29,041 nt of DNA from a virus, in IMG/VR virus record IMGVR_UViG_3300036766_000162, positions 1 through 29,041 of that record; one strand, 5' to 3'. Below the pieces are notes generated by a model, which saw only the letters and a program-made list of their open reading frames with translations, was not told the origin of the DNA and did not search any database. Each line of letters opens with the position of its first letter. The stretch's first letter is position 1. This document shows, in pieces, positions 3,438 to 20,143 of this stretch. A program made the translations under genes and the position numbers.

Positions 3438-4109
3438 ATGACCAGTCTAACGGCCCTCATCAGAATATCTCCTAAAATGCCGATGTCGGGCCAGCCCCCG
3501 TTCTTCACCGACAAATTTACGTTGGTCAACGCCTGTCACCTATCGTTCTTCTCCGCTGGCGACTGTGATCGTCACTACTTCCTCGATAACTGCCCGGTTG
3601 AATGGGACAAGCACTTCGAGTTTGCCGGCACCGTCCACCGAGGGATATGGGGAAAGCTGGAGAGTTTACACAACGTTTTCGACTTTGCCCGTAACCTGTC
3701 GGGTGACCTCCTTTTCTTGGAGGACGATTACCTTTGGCGCCCGGGGACGCTCCCTACCCTTGTTGAGGGTTTGGATCGCTTTGGCATGGTTTCTCCCTAT
3801 GATCACCCGGACTTCTACCACAAGGAGGGAATTACCTGTACTGAGGTCTACCGCCTTGGGGATCACCTCTGGCGCTGGTGTCCGACCAATACCCACACCT
3901 TTGCCGTCCGATCGGATATCCTCCGCGAGCACTTTGACGCGTTCCGTAACAACAATCTCCACGATTGGCAGATGTTCACCGAGCTCCAGATAGAGGGTGT
4001 GAGGCTCTATACGCCCCTCCTGTCGCTTGCTACCCACTTAGTTGAGGGAAAGCTGGCTTTAGGGGTAGATTGGGCTAAAGTCGCCGGGGGACTTGACTTT
4101 GGGAGTTAG
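3438..4109 (+). CDS. glycosyltransferase-like protein (GT-A fold)
   Basis: 223 residues. LLFLEDDYLWRPG at about 91-103 is the metal/nucleotide-sugar DxD region of a GT-A glycosyltransferase (E95 D96 D97), preceded by a helical segment and followed by a plausible acceptor region (HLWRWCPTNTHTFAVRSDIL). It starts one base after the preceding stop. Likely activity is transfer of a sugar from an activated donor to protein, DNA or cell-surface glycan. It is the first of four glycosyltransferases in the window and the only one in the early block. Its end overlaps the spacer of the next promoter. Confidence 0.7.
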   Translation: MTSLTALIRISPKMPMSGQPPFFTDKFTLVNACHLSFFSAGDCDRHYFLDNCPVEWDKHFEFAGTVHRGIWGKLESLHNVFDFARNLSGDLLFLEDDYLWRPGTLPTLVEGLDRFGMVSPYDHPDFYHKEGITCTEVYRLGDHLWRWCPTNTHTFAVRSDILREHFDAFRNNNLHDWQMFTELQIEGVRLYTPLLSLATHLVEGKLALGVDWAKVAGGLDFGS

Positions 4110-5130: not shown

Positions 5131-5363
5131 ACGAGTACCGCACCAAGGACTTTGATACCGCCGTCGTCCTCCTTACCTACGGCTTGAAGATTGTCCGGGT
5201 CGAGTCTGATCCAAACGGCCGGACGCGTTACTTCGTCTTTGACGCTACCGACAATAGCACAGAGAATATCCTGACCGATTACTACTCTGGAGTTTTCACG
5301 GCGTCAGTGAGAGAGGTCTTAGCTAACGTTAAACTATTAAAAAGTATGATCTTCAATCAATGA
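5127..5363 (+). CDS. DUF5659-like small protein
   Basis: 78 residues from a GTG at 5127 that overlaps the membrane peptide stop (GTGA). An upstream in-frame ATG at 5049 lies wholly inside the membrane peptide gene and is rejected. The pattern KDFDTAVVLLTYGLKIVRVE, then RYFVFD, then ILTDYYSG and LANVKLLKSMIF matches the DUF5659 layout of small phage/plasmid proteins of unknown function. It overlaps the next gene by four bases. Confidence 0.65.
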   Translation: MNEYRTKDFDTAVVLLTYGLKIVRVESDPNGRTRYFVFDATDNSTENILTDYYSGVFTASVREVLANVKLLKSMIFNQ

Positions 5364-5758
5364 CAACTAATTGGACACTCCCTACGGCCGATGAGTACGG
5401 TGAGATAACCAACTCAAAGGCAACCTATAGGGCGATAGTCGAGAAGCTTTCTACCCAAAGAGCCGTCTTGGTTGGCTGGACTGAGGGAAGTTCTCACTTT
5501 GATATACTCTTTACGCTTAAACCAAGCTACTTTTCAGGTAATATTAAGGCCTGGCAGAGGGGTATGCGCCGGGACTACCTCTACGTTTCTATAATCGGGA
5601 TCGGATCCTTTGGTTTCAGTTACATCGGCCCTGAATTCTCTGACCCCAAATACTACGTTGAAAAGTTCGGCCATACCTTTGGGGCAACCGACAGACAATT
5701 GGCTACACTACTCAATGGTGTCAGATATGAACTGTATATGCAGGGAAAGGAGTTCTAA
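5360..5758 (+). CDS. hypothetical protein
   Basis: 132 residues, four-base overlap with the upstream stop. It has alternating beta-type segments (AVLVGWTEGSSHFDILFTL, YLYVSIIGIGSFGFSYIG) and no Cys or transmembrane helix. The family is not recognised. It lies within the small-gene operon directly before the candidate diversified protein gene. Confidence 0.6.
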   Translation: MTTNWTLPTADEYGEITNSKATYRAIVEKLSTQRAVLVGWTEGSSHFDILFTLKPSYFSGNIKAWQRGMRRDYLYVSIIGIGSFGFSYIGPEFSDPKYYVEKFGHTFGATDRQLATLLNGVRYELYMQGKEF

Positions 5759-5768
5759 AATTACCATC

Positions 5769-6371
5769 ATGACAACTAAAAAATACAAAGTCCTTGTCCA
5801 CTACGACAAATCAGTTAAAGAGTTAGTTAAAGATGGCAAGTACGACGATATTAACTCCAACATTACTGGCAAAAACTTTCCTTTTGACGAAAGTTGTGGA
5901 GATAAGGAATGTTCAACCAAAGAAAGTCTTGACATCTACCTCCTCAACTTCAAGCGAGACATCTCAAGCGAAAAAATATTAAAAATTATTGAAAAACGGG
6001 GCTATCGTGTCTGTAATCTTAAAGAATTGTTAAGTTTGGGTGCTCAATATCCCGACTTACAGAGAAAAGACTACATAGTTGCTTTAGGTAGTCAGTGGCA
6101 GGGCCCGTTCGGTAGCCCCTACGTCCCGTACCTCGGCGGGCACGACTCCTATCGGCACCTCAGCCTCACTTGGCTCGAGGGCGACTGGAGCTCGGGCTGG
6201 CAGTTTGCTTGTTTGAAAGTAGAATCTAACTCCTTTGAACCCTTGCATGAAGAATATGACAAACATGTTAACCTTGACCCTTTTACCCTTACCGAGGTAG
6301 GCGAAAAACTAGACTTACTTCAGGCCGGCTTAGAGGGGATACAGGAAAGGTTAAATAATATCTTTAAGTAA
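5769..6371 (+). CDS. candidate diversity-generating-retroelement target protein (C-type-lectin-like)
   Basis: 200 residues from ATG 5769. Residues about 82-100 (KRGYRVCNLKELLSLGAQYP) and IVALGS (about 105-110) are followed by a segment at 112-146 with the scaffold VPYL-x(6)-R-x-L-x-L-x-W-x-E-x-x-W-x(3)-WQFA. This resembles variable C-type-lectin/FGE-like proteins of Patescibacteria diversified by retroelements. The DNA of this segment (6102-6200) is about 70% GC with few A (about 12 per 100), no AAN codon, and 21 of 33 codons end in C, whereas the rest of the gene is AT-rich. That is what adenine mutagenesis of an AAC-rich template leaves. No reverse transcriptase or template repeat is in the window. 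Unusually, about 54 residues follow the segment. Confidence 0.65.
   Translation: MTTKKYKVLVHYDKSVKELVKDGKYDDINSNITGKNFPFDESCGDKECSTKESLDIYLLNFKRDISSEKILKIIEKRGYRVCNLKELLSLGAQYPDLQRKDYIVALGSQWQGPFGSPYVPYLGGHDSYRHLSLTWLEGDWSSGWQFACLKVESNSFEPLHEEYDKHVNLDPFTLTEVGEKLDLLQAGLEGIQERLNNIFK
6099..6205 (+). other. putative variable region (VR) of the 5769 gene
   Basis: A GC-rich, adenine-poor island inside an AT-rich gene, with mostly NNC codons at loop positions and invariant hydrophobic/Trp scaffold codons between them. The flank after it (cagtttgcttgtttgaaag) returns to AT-rich sequence abruptly. I read it as the mutagenised window of a C-type-lectin-like fold. A template repeat copy was looked for by eye and not found. 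Confidence 0.55.
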
Positions 6372-6372
6372 A

Positions 6373-6765
6373 ATGAAAGACCAAATTAACAGAGAAAAGA
6401 TAGAGGACATTATCCAACACGACACTACTTGCGGTTCGGAAGCTAGTGAGGCGATGGGTTACGAAGTTCCATGCACTTGTGGTGCTGACCAGAAGACTAA
6501 AACCATCCTAGACATTCTCACCCAAGCCATACAGGAAGCCTACTGGGAGGGGATACACGTCATGGAGAAAGAATCTGACAGAGCAATAGCTTTAACAAAG
6601 GAGGAAGCAAGGAAAGAGGGAGAGAGGAGTGTGGTGGAGAAGATAAGGAAGATAAGGAAATATGATTGTGATGAGGAGGGGTGCTGTGGCAAAACAGGGT
6701 TAGCAAAAATAAAGGCTTTCAACTCTGCTCTTGACTGCTTACTTTTGGAAATGGATAAAAAGTAA
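6373..6765 (+). CDS. hypothetical Cys-containing charged protein
   Basis: 130 residues. There are two Cys groups: PCTCG with an upstream Cys (about 20-37) and CDEEGCC (about 98-104), separated by a long charged helix (EKESDRAIALTKEEARKEGERSVVEKIRKIRK). The layout may bind zinc. The first third resembles a recurring small phage protein with a PCTCG motif. One base separates it from the upstream stop. Function unknown. Confidence 0.6.
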   Translation: MKDQINREKIEDIIQHDTTCGSEASEAMGYEVPCTCGADQKTKTILDILTQAIQEAYWEGIHVMEKESDRAIALTKEEARKEGERSVVEKIRKIRKYDCDEEGCCGKTGLAKIKAFNSALDCLLLEMDKK

Positions 6766-6813
6766 ATGAAAACAACTAACACAAACTGGAGATTAGTAAA
6801 AGATAAAAAGTAA
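6766..6813 (+). CDS. 15-residue micro-ORF, repeated copy 1
   Basis: ATG directly follows the preceding stop and the frame ends one base before the next ATG. The product shares the core TNTNWRLVKDK with the micro-ORF at 7226. The two sit on a 34-base direct repeat with a single mismatch. It could be a leader peptide, a translational-coupling device, or a remnant of the repeat rather than a functional peptide. Confidence 0.4.
   Translation: MKTTNTNWRLVKDKK
6775..6808 (+). repeat. 34-base direct repeat, copy 1
   Basis: Matches 7229-7262 at 33 of 34 positions (G versus T at position 22). The copies are 454 bases apart and flank the 135-residue gene at 6815; each lies immediately upstream of a gene and encodes most of a micro-ORF. 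Confidence 0.85.
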
Positions 6814-7225: not shown

Positions 7226-7270
7226 ATGACTAACACAAACTGGAGATTATTAAAAGATAAAAGAGTATGA
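7226..7270 (+). CDS. 14-residue micro-ORF, repeated copy 2
   Basis: ATG at 7226, stop TGA at 7268-7270, overlapping the next gene's ATG (7267) as ATGA, the usual coupling arrangement in this genome. The product shares TNTNWRLLKDK with the micro-ORF at 6766. The conserved frame and coupling argue for translation; the tiny length argues for caution. Confidence 0.45.
   Translation: MTNTNWRLLKDKRV
7229..7262 (+). repeat. 34-base direct repeat, copy 2
   Basis: Second copy of the repeat at 6775-6808, with one mismatch. It lies directly before the gene at 7267. Confidence 0.85.
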
Positions 7271-8081: not shown

Positions 8082-8258
8082 ATGGCCCGCAACGAGAAGA
8101 AGAATAAGCTACCCCACTTTGGAGCACTTATCTTAGGTCATCGATCGCACATCAGCGGTAATAGGCGCCGAGGGAGCAACGGCAGGGCGGAAGCGTTCCT
8201 GAGCAAGTGGGATGGTATTCTAAAGGACTTTATGGCACACTACCGCAAGTTGGAGTAG
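8082..8258 (+). CDS. small basic protein ending inside the tRNA
   Basis: 58 residues from ATG 8082 directly after the phosphatase stop. It is basic (NRRRGSNGR in the middle) with a C-terminal amphipathic helix (EAFLSKWDGILKDFMAHYRKLE). Its TAG stop (8256-8258) forms part of the tRNA 5' acceptor strand, so translation and tRNA processing compete for the same RNA. No family is recognised. Confidence 0.55.
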   Translation: MARNEKKNKLPHFGALILGHRSHISGNRRRGSNGRAEAFLSKWDGILKDFMAHYRKLE

Positions 8259-8330
8259 TAGCTCAGATAGGAAGAGCGCCAGACTGTGTCTACAGTCTGT
8301 CGGCCACAGGTTCGATCCCTGTCTACTCCG
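8252..8330 (+). tRNA. tRNA with expanded anticodon arm (isotype uncertain, Asn/Asp-like)
   Basis: Cloverleaf parts: acceptor GGAGTAG (8252-8258) pairs perfectly with CTACTCC (8323-8329); D arm GCTC/GAGC with GG in the loop; T arm ACAGG/CCTGT with loop TTCGATC. The discriminator is G and no CCA is encoded. Between the D and T stems there are 28 bases instead of the usual 23. The anticodon stem CCAGA/TCTGT (one C-U mismatch) encloses a 12-base loop CTGTGTCTACAG rather than seven, and the loop ends CTGT/ACAG can pair. The anticodon therefore cannot be assigned; G73 suits Asn or Asp. It may be a functional odd tRNA, a tRNA mimic or a decayed copy. Confidence 0.7.
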
Positions 8331-8332
8331 TT

Positions 8333-11096: not shown

Positions 11097-11449
11097 ATCG
11101 AATCGTTGTTAAGACTATTCCATACTCTAAACAAAGGTATCCGAGTTTGGATGATTTTTATGTCGACAAAGAGGGGGTAATCCAATTTCGGATAAGCAAA
11201 CGTAAGGACGAGAGAGAGGAGTGGTTAATCCTATTCCACGCCTTTGTAGAGGCGATGTTGGCGAGGTTTGAGGGGGTGAGCTGGGAATCTATAGATAAGT
11301 TCGATATCCTGCTTGATAAAGTTGATCCTGATGCTCAACCTGGTGACCACCCTGACGCGCCATACCGACATCAACACTGTATCGCTGAGATACTTGAAAG
11401 GCTTTTGTGTGAAGAGTTAGGAATACGTTGGGACGATTATTTGAAATGA
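11093..11449 (+). CDS. conserved phage protein of unknown function
   Basis: 118 residues from a GTG at 11093 overlapping the previous stop (GTGA); the ATG at 11066 lies deeper in the upstream gene and is less likely. The core LFHAFVEAMLARFEGVSWESIDKFD, then PGDHPDAPYRHQHCIAEILERLLCEELGI-W follows a widespread phage family with conserved His and Glu residues that could form a metal site. Its function is not established. Confidence 0.65.
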   Translation: MNRIVVKTIPYSKQRYPSLDDFYVDKEGVIQFRISKRKDEREEWLILFHAFVEAMLARFEGVSWESIDKFDILLDKVDPDAQPGDHPDAPYRHQHCIAEILERLLCEELGIRWDDYLK

Positions 11450-12177
11450 AAATATCTATTTGTCTGCCTAGTGTCAGGTGGGATTCAGTTCAAATCAACT
11501 ATCAGAGCTTACTCAAACAAACATTTCCTCAGAGAGATTTTGAAGTTCTTATATGTGCTCCGTTTAATAGATTTGAATTCACCAACGTGCGTTGGTTAGA
11601 CAATCCATCCAAGAATCCTGGTGACTATTATTCTTTAATGAAATCCTGGAACCGTTTGTTCTCCAACGCCAAGGGAGAGCTGTTCGTCACCGTTTGCGAC
11701 AATGAGTGGATAGACAGAGAAGCATTAGAGAGATTATGGAACCGATACGAGGAGAATCCGCGAGCACTTGTCTCTGGTATCGGTAATCACTATCGAGACG
11801 TTTTGTCTGACGGAATAGGTATTGATCTTGTTGCCCCAGACGTTCGCCCATCTCAAATGCTTAAGCGATTTCAGATGTCTTCCGTTGCCAACTGCGATCA
11901 GGCTCTCTGTTCTATCCCCCGCAGGGCTGTATACGATGTGGGTGGCGTTGAGGAGGAGTTTGACAAGGTCGCCTCCAATGGTGAGCAGGAGATGCTTGAG
12001 CGTATGATTCAAGCTGGCTACACTACCTGGGTTGATCAGGACGTCAAATATGTTGCCAAATACCACGAGCGACTTAATGTCGACTGGAACCGCAAGTTTG
12101 CTGAGGGTCGTGAGCTATACTTCAAATACAAGCCGTCAATTCTCGCCGGTGATAGACTAAAGTTAGAGTATATTTAA
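11446..12177 (+). CDS. family 2-like glycosyltransferase
   Basis: 243 residues from ATG 11446 (ATGA overlap with the previous stop). The N-terminus MKISICLPSVR, the SLLKQTFPQRDFEVLICAP repeat of the GT2 fold, and GELFVTVCDNEWID at about 77-90 in the place of the DxD strand indicate a GT-A glycosyltransferase. A GGVEEEFD segment in the second half is typical of GT2 acceptor-side loops. The DxD is not canonical (CDNEW), so activity is inferred. It sits between terminase and portal genes. Confidence 0.75.
   Translation: MKISICLPSVRWDSVQINYQSLLKQTFPQRDFEVLICAPFNRFEFTNVRWLDNPSKNPGDYYSLMKSWNRLFSNAKGELFVTVCDNEWIDREALERLWNRYEENPRALVSGIGNHYRDVLSDGIGIDLVAPDVRPSQMLKRFQMSSVANCDQALCSIPRRAVYDVGGVEEEFDKVASNGEQEMLERMIQAGYTTWVDQDVKYVAKYHERLNVDWNRKFAEGRELYFKYKPSILAGDRLKLEYI
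12169..12174 (+). promoter_or_regulatory. -10-like hexamer before portal gene (weak)
   Basis: TATATT ends six bases before the portal ATG (12181), the same spacing as at other leaderless starts. No -35 or extended -10 is visible, so this may be chance. Confidence 0.25.
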
Positions 12178-16281: not shown

Positions 16282-16611
16282 ATGAGCGTAACCATTAAAG
16301 CCGTACAATATGACGCACTTCGCGGCAACCACCTAGAAGTCGGTCAGTTCACACTGATCCCAGCAGACTTCTTCCCAGTTATCTCCGCCGGAACCGAAGT
16401 CGAGCTCTCAGTCGATGGATTGGTTTGCCAACCCGGTGATCAACTGTTCGTAAGTCCGATTGACCTAACCGCAGGCCTGGTCTGTAAGGACGCAGACGTG
16501 GATGGAGTCAATAGTGCTGATGTCACTCTGATTAACGTCAGTACTAGCAATATAACTGACTCGACCGAGACGGCATACGACTACCAGCTCTACCACTACA
16601 CGACACCGTAA
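16282..16611 (+). CDS. capsid-adjacent beta protein, paralogue A (possible decoration protein)
   Basis: 109 residues, clearly homologous to the next gene: both begin MSVTIK-VQYDALRG-HLEVG-FTLIPAD and end in SNITDSTE-x(4)-Y-L-HY-TP. The alternating polar/hydrophobic sequence suggests a beta sandwich. The position right after the capsid gene suits a head decoration or capsid-stabilising protein; that role is inferred from position. It is preceded by an A-rich 33-base gap without a promoter. Confidence 0.65.
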   Translation: MSVTIKAVQYDALRGNHLEVGQFTLIPADFFPVISAGTEVELSVDGLVCQPGDQLFVSPIDLTAGLVCKDADVDGVNSADVTLINVSTSNITDSTETAYDYQLYHYTTP

Positions 16612-16612
16612 T

Positions 16613-16945
16613 ATGAGCGTAACAATCAAGTCCGTCCAATACGACGCCCTCCGTGGGAGTCACCTAGAGGTCGGTAGATTTACCCTAATCCCCGCAGATC
16701 AAGAGGTAGTTATCAGTGCTGGCACCGAAGTAGGGTTTACGACACAAATTCCCACCGCAGTGGGAGATCAAATCTTCGTTATTCCGACAGATCTGTTCGC
16801 AGGTTTAGTTTTAAAGGCGGCTGACGCCAATGCTGACCCTGGAAACTTTGTCGATATCGTTCTGGCCAACATTACGAATAGCAATATAACTGACTCGACC
16901 GAGGAAGAGTTTAACTACCTACTTTTCCACTACAACACTCCGTAA
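16613..16945 (+). CDS. capsid-adjacent beta protein, paralogue B
   Basis: 110 residues, tandem duplicate of the preceding gene, one base after its stop. Conserved N- and C-terminal blocks flank a diverged middle (residues about 35-85). At DNA level most codons differ at third positions, yet a 25-base block is identical in both (16545-16569 and 16879-16903). Role as for paralogue A. Confidence 0.65.
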   Translation: MSVTIKSVQYDALRGSHLEVGRFTLIPADQEVVISAGTEVGFTTQIPTAVGDQIFVIPTDLFAGLVLKAADANADPGNFVDIVLANITNSNITDSTEEEFNYLLFHYNTP

Positions 16946-18309: not shown

Positions 18310-18338
18310 TTGACAATTGGTTGACAATTACTTATCCT
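18310..18338 (+). promoter_or_regulatory. sigma70-like promoter, leaderless GTG start
   Basis: TTGACA at 18310-18315, a 17-base spacer and TATCCT at 18333-18338; after exactly six bases comes a GTG (18345). This spacing argues for GTG 18345, not the TTG at 18321, as the start of the glycosyltransferase. Confidence 0.65.
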
Positions 18339-18344
18339 GCGGGG

Positions 18345-19454
18345 GTGAACGAAACCGAAAACGGTAAGACACTTAAGTTTACTTTCTACTCTGGTGAGAC
18401 GTTTGAGCCTTGGGACTTCCACAACCCTTTGGAGGTCGGTATTGGCGGTTCTGAGACGGCACAGGTCGAGATGGCGATCCGATTGGCACAGAGGGGCTAT
18501 GACGTCGTTTCCTACTCACCTAAGCCAACACACGAGGACGAGTTGTTCAGGGGAGTCTTATGGAAATCAAACGAGAGGGTCAACTACATCCGAGAGGGTG
18601 TCTGGGTGATCTCACGAGCCGCTACGGTGACTGACCACTTCCCAAAATCGCACCCCAAACAAAAATTATGGCTCGTCTGTCAAGATATTGATTACCATAG
18701 AGCCACCAAGAAGCAATTGGAGGCGTTTGACAGGGTCTTTCCTCTTTGTACCGCCCAACTTAAGCATTTCAAAAACATTTGTCCCTACCTAAAGGATCGT
18801 CTGACTGTCAGTTCAAATGGTATCAGAACGGATTATATTAACTCAATCAAGGAGATAGAGCGCAATCCTTTCCGACTTATGTTCGCTTCGTCTCCCGATC
18901 GAGGGCTTCTACCTTTACTTAAGATATTTAAGAAAGCGAAAGAGAGGATACCTCAACTTGAACTCCACGTTTTCTACGGTTTCAACAACATAAACAAGAT
19001 AATTGGCAGTGACACCGTGCCTCTGGGAATGGAACAGGTGACCAAGAGAGATATTCTTCAATGGATGAAGCAACCCGGGGTTACTGATCACGGACGGATT
19101 GGTCAGGGTGACCTTTACATTGAGTGGCTTAAGTCTGGTGTCTGGTGTCACCCATCAGCGGTTTTCCCCGAGACAAGTTGTATTACCTCAATGGACGCCC
19201 AAGCGTGTGGCGCTATCCCCATCACGGCGCCCCTGTGGGCTTTGGTAGACAATGTGAAGTACGGTTACTTGCTGGACGTGCTCCCCTTAACCGATCCTGT
19301 GGCCCGCCTAGACTATGTTGACGCCTTGGTTGACCTACTTGTTAAACGTGACTCTCAAGAGGTTGAGGCAATACGTGCGAAAATGCGGGAATACGCACTT
19401 ACCCGATTTGATTGGGAGAGGGTGGTTGATCAGTATTTAGAACTCGCAAAATGA
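18345..19454 (+). CDS. family 4-like (GT-B) glycosyltransferase
   Basis: 369 residues from GTG 18345. The N-terminal domain has VGIGGSETAQVEMAIRLAQRGYDV, the GG turn of GT-B enzymes. The C-terminal domain has a LMFASSPDRGL segment, HGRIGQGDLYIEWLKSGVWCHPS and then FPETSCITSMDAQACGAIPIT, the donor-binding E-x(7)-E-like region of GT4. It would transfer a sugar from a nucleotide donor to a phage or host acceptor. It overlaps the next gene, also a glycosyltransferase, by four bases. Confidence 0.8.
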   Translation: MNETENGKTLKFTFYSGETFEPWDFHNPLEVGIGGSETAQVEMAIRLAQRGYDVVSYSPKPTHEDELFRGVLWKSNERVNYIREGVWVISRAATVTDHFPKSHPKQKLWLVCQDIDYHRATKKQLEAFDRVFPLCTAQLKHFKNICPYLKDRLTVSSNGIRTDYINSIKEIERNPFRLMFASSPDRGLLPLLKIFKKAKERIPQLELHVFYGFNNINKIIGSDTVPLGMEQVTKRDILQWMKQPGVTDHGRIGQGDLYIEWLKSGVWCHPSAVFPETSCITSMDAQACGAIPITAPLWALVDNVKYGYLLDVLPLTDPVARLDYVDALVDLLVKRDSQEVEAIRAKMREYALTRFDWERVVDQYLELAK

Positions 19455-20143
19455 CAGATCTAGTCCAACCCAAAACCGCAGGGACGATCTGCTACTTCTC
19501 TTGGCCGATGAATTACAACGCTTTCACTCAATCGTGGGGGAAAATGATCGAGTACAATGCCCGCGTCAACTTCGGTGGCCGAGTTAACTACACCTCAATT
19601 CAGTCCTCAAGTATCTCTTACGCCCGGAATGTGGCCGCACAGAACATGAAAGGAGACTGGATCCTAATGCTCGACTGCGACGCACAGTTTGACCCCGATA
19701 TTGCCGAGAGAATGGTTAGAATAATGGAGGAATACAACACCGCCGTTCTTACTGGCGTTTACCTATACAAAAAGGAGCCTCACTACCCGGTTCTTTACAC
19801 CTACAATAAAATACACGGCAAGTTTGAGGTCTGCGCTGGCTGGCAGTCTGATGGAAAGGCTAAGATATTCAAAATAGACGGCGCCGGGGCCGGTTGTCTG
19901 TTAATCAAGCGAATAACCCTCTCCTACATCGCCCAGGAGCTTCACGAGAAGCCTTTTGACATCATTTCACCTCTCGGAGAGGATATGTCGTTCTTCGATC
20001 GCCTGCGTCGGCTCAAGGTTGACTCTTGGTGTGATCCGTCTGTCGTTGTCGAACACCTAACGCTCAAACCACTCGTTCCCGGCCTTGACTACAACACCAA
20101 TCCGTCTTTTGAGGGGTTTGGAATACACACTAAGGGACTTTGA
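19451..20143 (+). CDS. GT-A glycosyltransferase
   Basis: 230 residues, four-base overlap with the GT4 gene. SISYARNVAAQNMKGDWILMLDCDAQF (about 53-79) contains the conserved SRN-like segment and the DxD (Asp-Cys-Asp) of GT-A enzymes. A GAGAGCLLIKR segment (about 145-155) and EDMSFFDRLRRL (about 177-188) match the later acceptor and catalytic loop (ED) of GT2 proteins. It probably works with the upstream enzyme to build a short glycan. This is the last gene before a new promoter. Confidence 0.8.
   Translation: MTDLVQPKTAGTICYFSWPMNYNAFTQSWGKMIEYNARVNFGGRVNYTSIQSSSISYARNVAAQNMKGDWILMLDCDAQFDPDIAERMVRIMEEYNTAVLTGVYLYKKEPHYPVLYTYNKIHGKFEVCAGWQSDGKAKIFKIDGAGAGCLLIKRITLSYIAQELHEKPFDIISPLGEDMSFFDRLRRLKVDSWCDPSVVVEHLTLKPLVPGLDYNTNPSFEGFGIHTKGL

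What the first reader, a model, noticed from the sequence alone, without database searches (positions are those of the whole stretch)
6099..6205. Adenine-poor variable-region-like island in an accessory protein: candidate retroelement (DGR) target carried by a phage
Seen: in a gene that is AT-rich on both sides, 6101-6200 has about 70% GC and only about 12 A per 100 bases; of 33 codons at 6102-6200, 21 end in C and none is AAN. The protein keeps a hydrophobic/Trp scaffold (VPYL, R-x-L-x-L-x-W, E-x-x-W, WQFA) with changing residues between. Known: DGRs mutate A in a template, mostly AAC codons, diversifying C-type-lectin folds, and Patescibacteria and their phages carry many. Inference: this is a VR fixed after mutagenic retrohoming. 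No reverse transcriptase or template copy is visible here, so it would depend on a part outside the window or act in trans from the host.
Basis: partly seen in the sequence, partly recalled or inferred. Interest (0 to 1): 0.85.

Follow-up and report, generated by a model that had tools for sequence, protein, structure and literature searches.

The report
Phage-carried hypervariable gene lacking its mutator
A virus of bacteria carries a small binding-protein gene whose middle 100 bases bear the marks of a targeted mutation machine (a diversity-generating retroelement) that the virus record itself lacks, so the rewriting was probably done by a machine outside it, most likely that of its bacterial host.

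Summary
Codons at 6102-6200 are 70% GC and 12% A, 21 of 33 end in C, and this is the GC-richest 100-mer of the window. The gene (5769-6371, 200 aa) belongs, up to the end of its variable region (VR), to a protein family of Patescibacteria. In nine loci of that family a separate A-rich template repeat (TR), mostly with a DGR reverse transcriptase nearby, differs from the VR almost only where the TR has A. Against a consensus of 20 TRs, the window changes 11 of 20 A-columns but 4 of 32 others. The closest homologue (Collierbacteria, 51% identity) has the RT next door. The predicted fold is C-type-lectin-like. The window has no RT and no TR. Six more phage records carry the family, also without RT or TR. 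Phage copies arose at least twice. In phages the VR keeps template-like third bases (window GC3 0.92) while the rest of the gene is AT-rich (0.38). The VR was therefore probably copied from a template outside the phage, most likely a host DGR. The cognate TR, the host and present activity were not shown. The window alone has lost the usual VR 3' motif and may be frozen.

The parts
5769..6371 (+). 200-aa phage-borne member of the Patescibacterial DGR target-protein family (ATG 5769, TAA 6369-6371)
   Evidence: profile built without the window protein finds it at E 2.2e-47; 51% identity to L028 (Collierbacteria)
5769..6092 (+). N-terminal alpha/beta domain, residues 1-108; AT-rich (GC about 0.35, GC3 0.38)
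6093..6200 (+). variable-region (VR) island, residues 109-144, C-type-lectin-like core; GC 0.69, A 0.13, GC3 0.92
   Evidence: 11/20 TR-A columns changed against 4/32 non-A columns
6201..6221 (+). position of the VR 3' constant segment (initiation-of-mutagenic-homing side, IMH); reads CAGTTTGCTTGTTTGAAAGTA instead of the family's CGNTTC..GCCGTTCGC type
   Evidence: motif kept by nearly all family members listed there and by the other phages
6222..6368 (+). C-terminal extension after the VR, including a long predicted helix (residues 171-199); absent from most host members
5360..5758 (+). preceding phage ORF, 132 aa, function unknown, 10 nt upstream
6373..6765 (+). following phage ORF, 130 aa, function unknown, 1 nt downstream; gene tightly packed in a co-directional accessory cluster

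Best explanation
The island is a variable region of a diversity-generating retroelement (DGR), inside a phage copy of a soluble C-type-lectin-like target-protein family that Patescibacteria diversify with their own DGRs. A cDNA made by error-prone reverse transcription of an A-rich, otherwise GC-rich template repeat overwrote codons of about 6093-6200 and randomised the bases opposite template adenines. The reverse transcriptase and template are not on the phage record, so the copying was done by a DGR outside it: most likely the host's, either acting in trans on the phage or just before the phage captured the gene. SHOWN: family membership, VR-type sequence and composition, concentration of change at template-A columns, absence of RT and TR from the window and from six other phage records. 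INFERRED: copying in trans from the host, Patescibacterial host, binding function of the protein. In this phage the VR may now be frozen, because the 3' constant segment has degenerated.
For: Family: a pattern scan of GTDB contigs gave 28 loci, mostly Patescibacteria, with homologues along the gene; leave-window-out profile E 2.2e-47. The family is DGR-diversified: nine loci of this family (twelve pairs in all) show TR/VR pairs with 0-1 mismatch outside TR-A in 80 nt, and DGR RTs lie close by in many, including next to the nearest homologue. VR signature: 11/20 consensus-A columns changed against 4/32 non-A columns, Fisher p 0.0015; family VRs have A 0.06-0.18, and the diverged members L054 and L055, without VR signature, 0.28-0.33. 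No RT or TR in the window. Six other phage records (22-40 kb) carry the family, none with RVT_1 at E<=1 or a TR. In phages the VR keeps high third-position GC while the N-terminal part does not (window 0.92 against 0.38; mean difference about 0.38 in six phages, about 0.09 in 18 host members), as expected if VRs are rewritten from an outside GC-rich template. Fold: pLDDT 88.5, Foldseek hits almost all C-type lectins. Precedents: remote VRs in cyanobacteria (PMC7517822); DGR supplied from a plasmid targeting a gene on a replicating phage (PMC3240598).
Against: No cognate TR found: best 7/47 non-A mismatches, against 0-1 for true pairs. No TR of the common type in 374 genomes of the nearest host class. 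The usual 3' motif of the VR is lost. The record is linear, so RT and TR could lie in an unassembled part of the phage. Host not shown: terminase and capsid genes have only one weak or moderate match each in about 375 genomes. Foldseek E-values are individually weak (best 0.04). The Fisher test shares columns with surface residues under selection.
Confidence: 0.75

Rival explanations
1. Frozen passenger: the phage captured an already diversified host gene, with its VR written in the host, and no rewriting has happened since. The island is a snapshot maintained or decaying under ordinary selection.
For: Loss of the 3' constant motif only in the window; nearest relatives are host genes; no cognate TR; other phage members (L149, L150) look degenerate.
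Against: The N-terminal part has 56% identity to the nearest host over the tree columns and GC3 0.38, so much time has passed, while VR GC3 is 0.92 and only 4/32 non-A columns differ from the TR consensus. Six other phages show the composition contrast with the motif intact.
Confidence: 0.4
2. The phage has its own complete DGR, and RT and TR lie in a part of the genome missing from this linear 29-kb record.
For: The record is linear and may be incomplete.
Against: In host loci of this family TR and RT usually sit within 0.5-2 kb of the VR, and they are not there in the window. Six other records of 22-40 kb also lack them. Published DGR clade 2 is almost entirely cellular (PMC8144416).
Confidence: 0.1
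3. The island is a chance GC-rich, A-poor stretch, or an imported segment, that merely codes for a conserved lectin-like domain without retroelement history.
For: Surface-exposed variation and scaffold conservation can arise by selection alone; A-poverty alone is not unique in the window.
Against: Codon shuffles, TR-A concentration, the diverged members L054 and L055 without the island, and the family's TR/VR pairs.
Confidence: 0.04

Closest known systems
Patescibacterial (CPR) DGRs, 'clade 2' of Roux et al. 2021 (PMC8144416), and their small soluble target proteins
   Same: Target gene is homologous along its length to the end of the VR, same VR scaffold, same TR-A mutation pattern, no transmembrane or known domain
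   Different: Carried by a phage, no RT or TR on the record, tail after the VR, 3' constant motif lost; clade 2 is reported as almost entirely cellular and that survey could not see remote VRs. That the RTs found here belong to clade 2 is inferred from their hosts, not tested by a tree
Bordetella phage BPP-1 DGR (mtd)
   Same: A phage gene with a VR in a C-type-lectin-like domain written by mutagenic retrohoming
   Different: BPP-1 carries its own RT, avd and TR and diversifies a tail-tip protein; here none is on the record and the gene lies in an accessory cluster, not the tail module; no hairpin after the VR
Remote variable proteins of cyanobacterial DGRs (PMC7517822)
   Same: VRs away from the RT, served in trans
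   Different: There within one cellular genome; here the target is on a phage and the source DGR is not identified

Membership tests
Diversity-generating retroelement target (VR) | Homology to a target family with TR/VR pairs | tested here: met
Diversity-generating retroelement target (VR) | Differences from a TR confined to TR adenines | tested here: inconclusive
   Against the consensus of 20 TRs: 11/20 A columns and 4/32 others; cognate TR not found
Diversity-generating retroelement target (VR) | C-type-lectin (or Ig-like) fold around the VR | tested here: met
   consistent but individually weak Foldseek scores
Diversity-generating retroelement target (VR) | 3' constant/IMH segment shared with the TR | tested here: inconclusive
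   The family's motif is absent in the window and present in six other phages; whether the window's own TR shares the divergent segment cannot be told without that TR
Diversity-generating retroelement target (VR) | Variation within the population at template-A positions | not testable with these tools
   Needs metagenomic reads
Complete DGR | DGR-type reverse transcriptase on the same record | tested here: not met
   window; six other phage records
Complete DGR | Template repeat on the same record | tested here: not met

The most novel reading that the evidence does not exclude
Phages of Patescibacteria have, at least twice independently, taken up DGR target genes without the retroelement, and let the DGR of the infected host rewrite them in trans: phage genes that borrow the host's hypermutation machine for a soluble, non-tail, lectin-like protein.
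Probability: 0.45. Interest if true: 0.82.

Novelty: new variant of a known kind. Interest (0 to 1): 0.66.

Why it matters
Known phage DGRs carry their own reverse transcriptase and mostly diversify receptor-binding tail proteins. An RT-less phage branch of a Patescibacterial target family would mean that phages exploit a host mutator in trans, and that surveys keyed on RT genes miss such targets. It also gives a handle on the unknown role of these soluble hypervariable proteins, since the phage keeps one in an accessory gene cluster.

Tried and rejected
Single-sequence and two-sequence searches of IMG/VR found nothing; the first strict patterns found one phage, and only a pattern without VPYL found the phage branch. 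Pfam, NCBIfam and PHROGs have no model for the family. The weak OspC and Avs1a hits were rejected as below cut-off or seen in one member only. BFVD gave no useful match. A BPP-1-like hairpin after the VR was looked for: absent in the window and in most VRs of the family, though several TRs have one. Host assignment by terminase and capsid gave at most weak matches. Phages sharing the terminase (L058-L079) have neither the gene nor an RT in the parts fetched. The L022 pair is a palindromic repeat, not a TR/VR pair.

Full report
Observation. No codon shuffle of 5000 reaches the GC maximum. It is the GC-richest 100-mer of the 29,041 bases.

What the gene is. A degenerate pattern for VPYL-x6-RxLxLxW-x4-W gave 28 loci in 84,980 genomes, mostly Patescibacteria. 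Many encode proteins homologous to the window protein along its length up to the end of the VR; a profile without the window protein finds it at E 2.2e-47. The nearest is a Collierbacteria protein (L028, 51% identity) with a DGR-type reverse transcriptase next to it. No Pfam, NCBIfam or PHROGs model covers the family (weak hits in single members only).

The family is diversified by DGRs. In nine loci of this family (twelve pairs in all) a separate A-rich copy pairs with the VR; mismatches outside TR adenines number 0 or 1 in 80 nt. A comparison of each VR with all TRs recovers the own TR with 0-1 mismatches at about 49 non-A sites in most loci that have one (further targets of a multi-target locus can differ more), and even finds a TR on another contig (L005 with L020), so the method can see remote templates.

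The window as a VR. Against the consensus of 20 TRs the window changed 11 of 20 A columns and 4 of 32 others (p 0.0015); another phage, G001, 12 of 20 and 0 of 32. Two further phages give p 0.003, one p 0.022, and two (G391, G395) are not significant. VR composition matches bona fide VRs; the diverged members L054 and L055 lack it. AlphaFold2 predicts an N-terminal alpha/beta domain, a lectin-like core and a C-terminal helix (pLDDT 88.5); Foldseek hits are almost all C-type lectins, with weak E-values, the most probable being Bdellovibrio Bd2740.

No machine on the phage. The window has no RT by a profile of 15 DGR-type RTs and no TR-like copy. A second scan of IMG/VR found further phage members; six whole records of 22-40 kb hold no RVT_1 at E<=1 and no TR (of the 40,043-bp record the last 43 bases were not read). 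In phages the VR is usually followed by a tail of some 30-50 residues, unlike the near-universal C-terminal VR reported in PMC8144416, although a few host members also run on past the VR.

Two captures. A tree of the N-terminal domain places the window with Collierbacteria (99/95) and the seven other phage rows in one clade (98/90) near Kaiser-/Adlerbacteria-type genes.

Recent rewriting. Third codon positions of the VR stay GC-rich in phages (window 0.92) while the N-terminal part is AT-rich (0.38). The mean difference over six phages is about 0.38, over 18 host members about 0.09. Old vertical inheritance without copying would be expected to level this. This is an inference: the test does not date the last copying.

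What argues for a frozen VR here. The 3' constant segment (RF[LA]AVR, CGNTTC..GTTCGC) is kept by nearly all family members and by the other phages, but reads CAGTTTGCTTGTTTGAAAGTA in the window. No cognate TR was found: the best TR mismatches at 7 of 47 non-A sites, and 374 genomes of the nearest host class hold no TR of the common type.

Host. Not shown. Terminase and capsid give one weak and one moderate match in 380 and 374 Patescibacteria genomes. A Patescibacterial host is inferred from the gene's relatives only.

Conclusion. The island is a DGR variable region in a phage-borne, RT-less member of a Patescibacterial target family. The most likely source of its sequence is a host DGR, in trans or shortly before capture.

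Noticed in passing
window 6775-6808 and 7229-7262: 34-nt direct repeat, 97% identical, 454 nt apart, between small accessory genes
   Followed up: no
window 16282-16611 and 16613-16945: Two tandem, duplicated ORFs of 109-110 aa
   Followed up: no
window 8251-8331: tRNA-like hit with a four-base anticodon (gtct) overlapping an ORF
   Followed up: no
window 3438-4109, 11428-12177, 18321-19454, 19451-20143: Several ORFs that look like glycosyltransferases by reading of the sequence; no family search done
   Followed up: no
L005 and L020: VR of a Patescibacteria contig matches at 0/47 non-A sites the TR on a contig binned as Bacilli: misbinning or a remote target
   Followed up: partly
L006 (Rokubacteria MAG), L024 (Bradyrhizobium erythrophlei): Family members outside Patescibacteria; L006 has three target genes in a row with TR and RT
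   Followed up: no
L008, L038, L153, L154, L156, L159: TRs followed by perfect 7-11 bp hairpins, while VRs mostly are not
   Followed up: no
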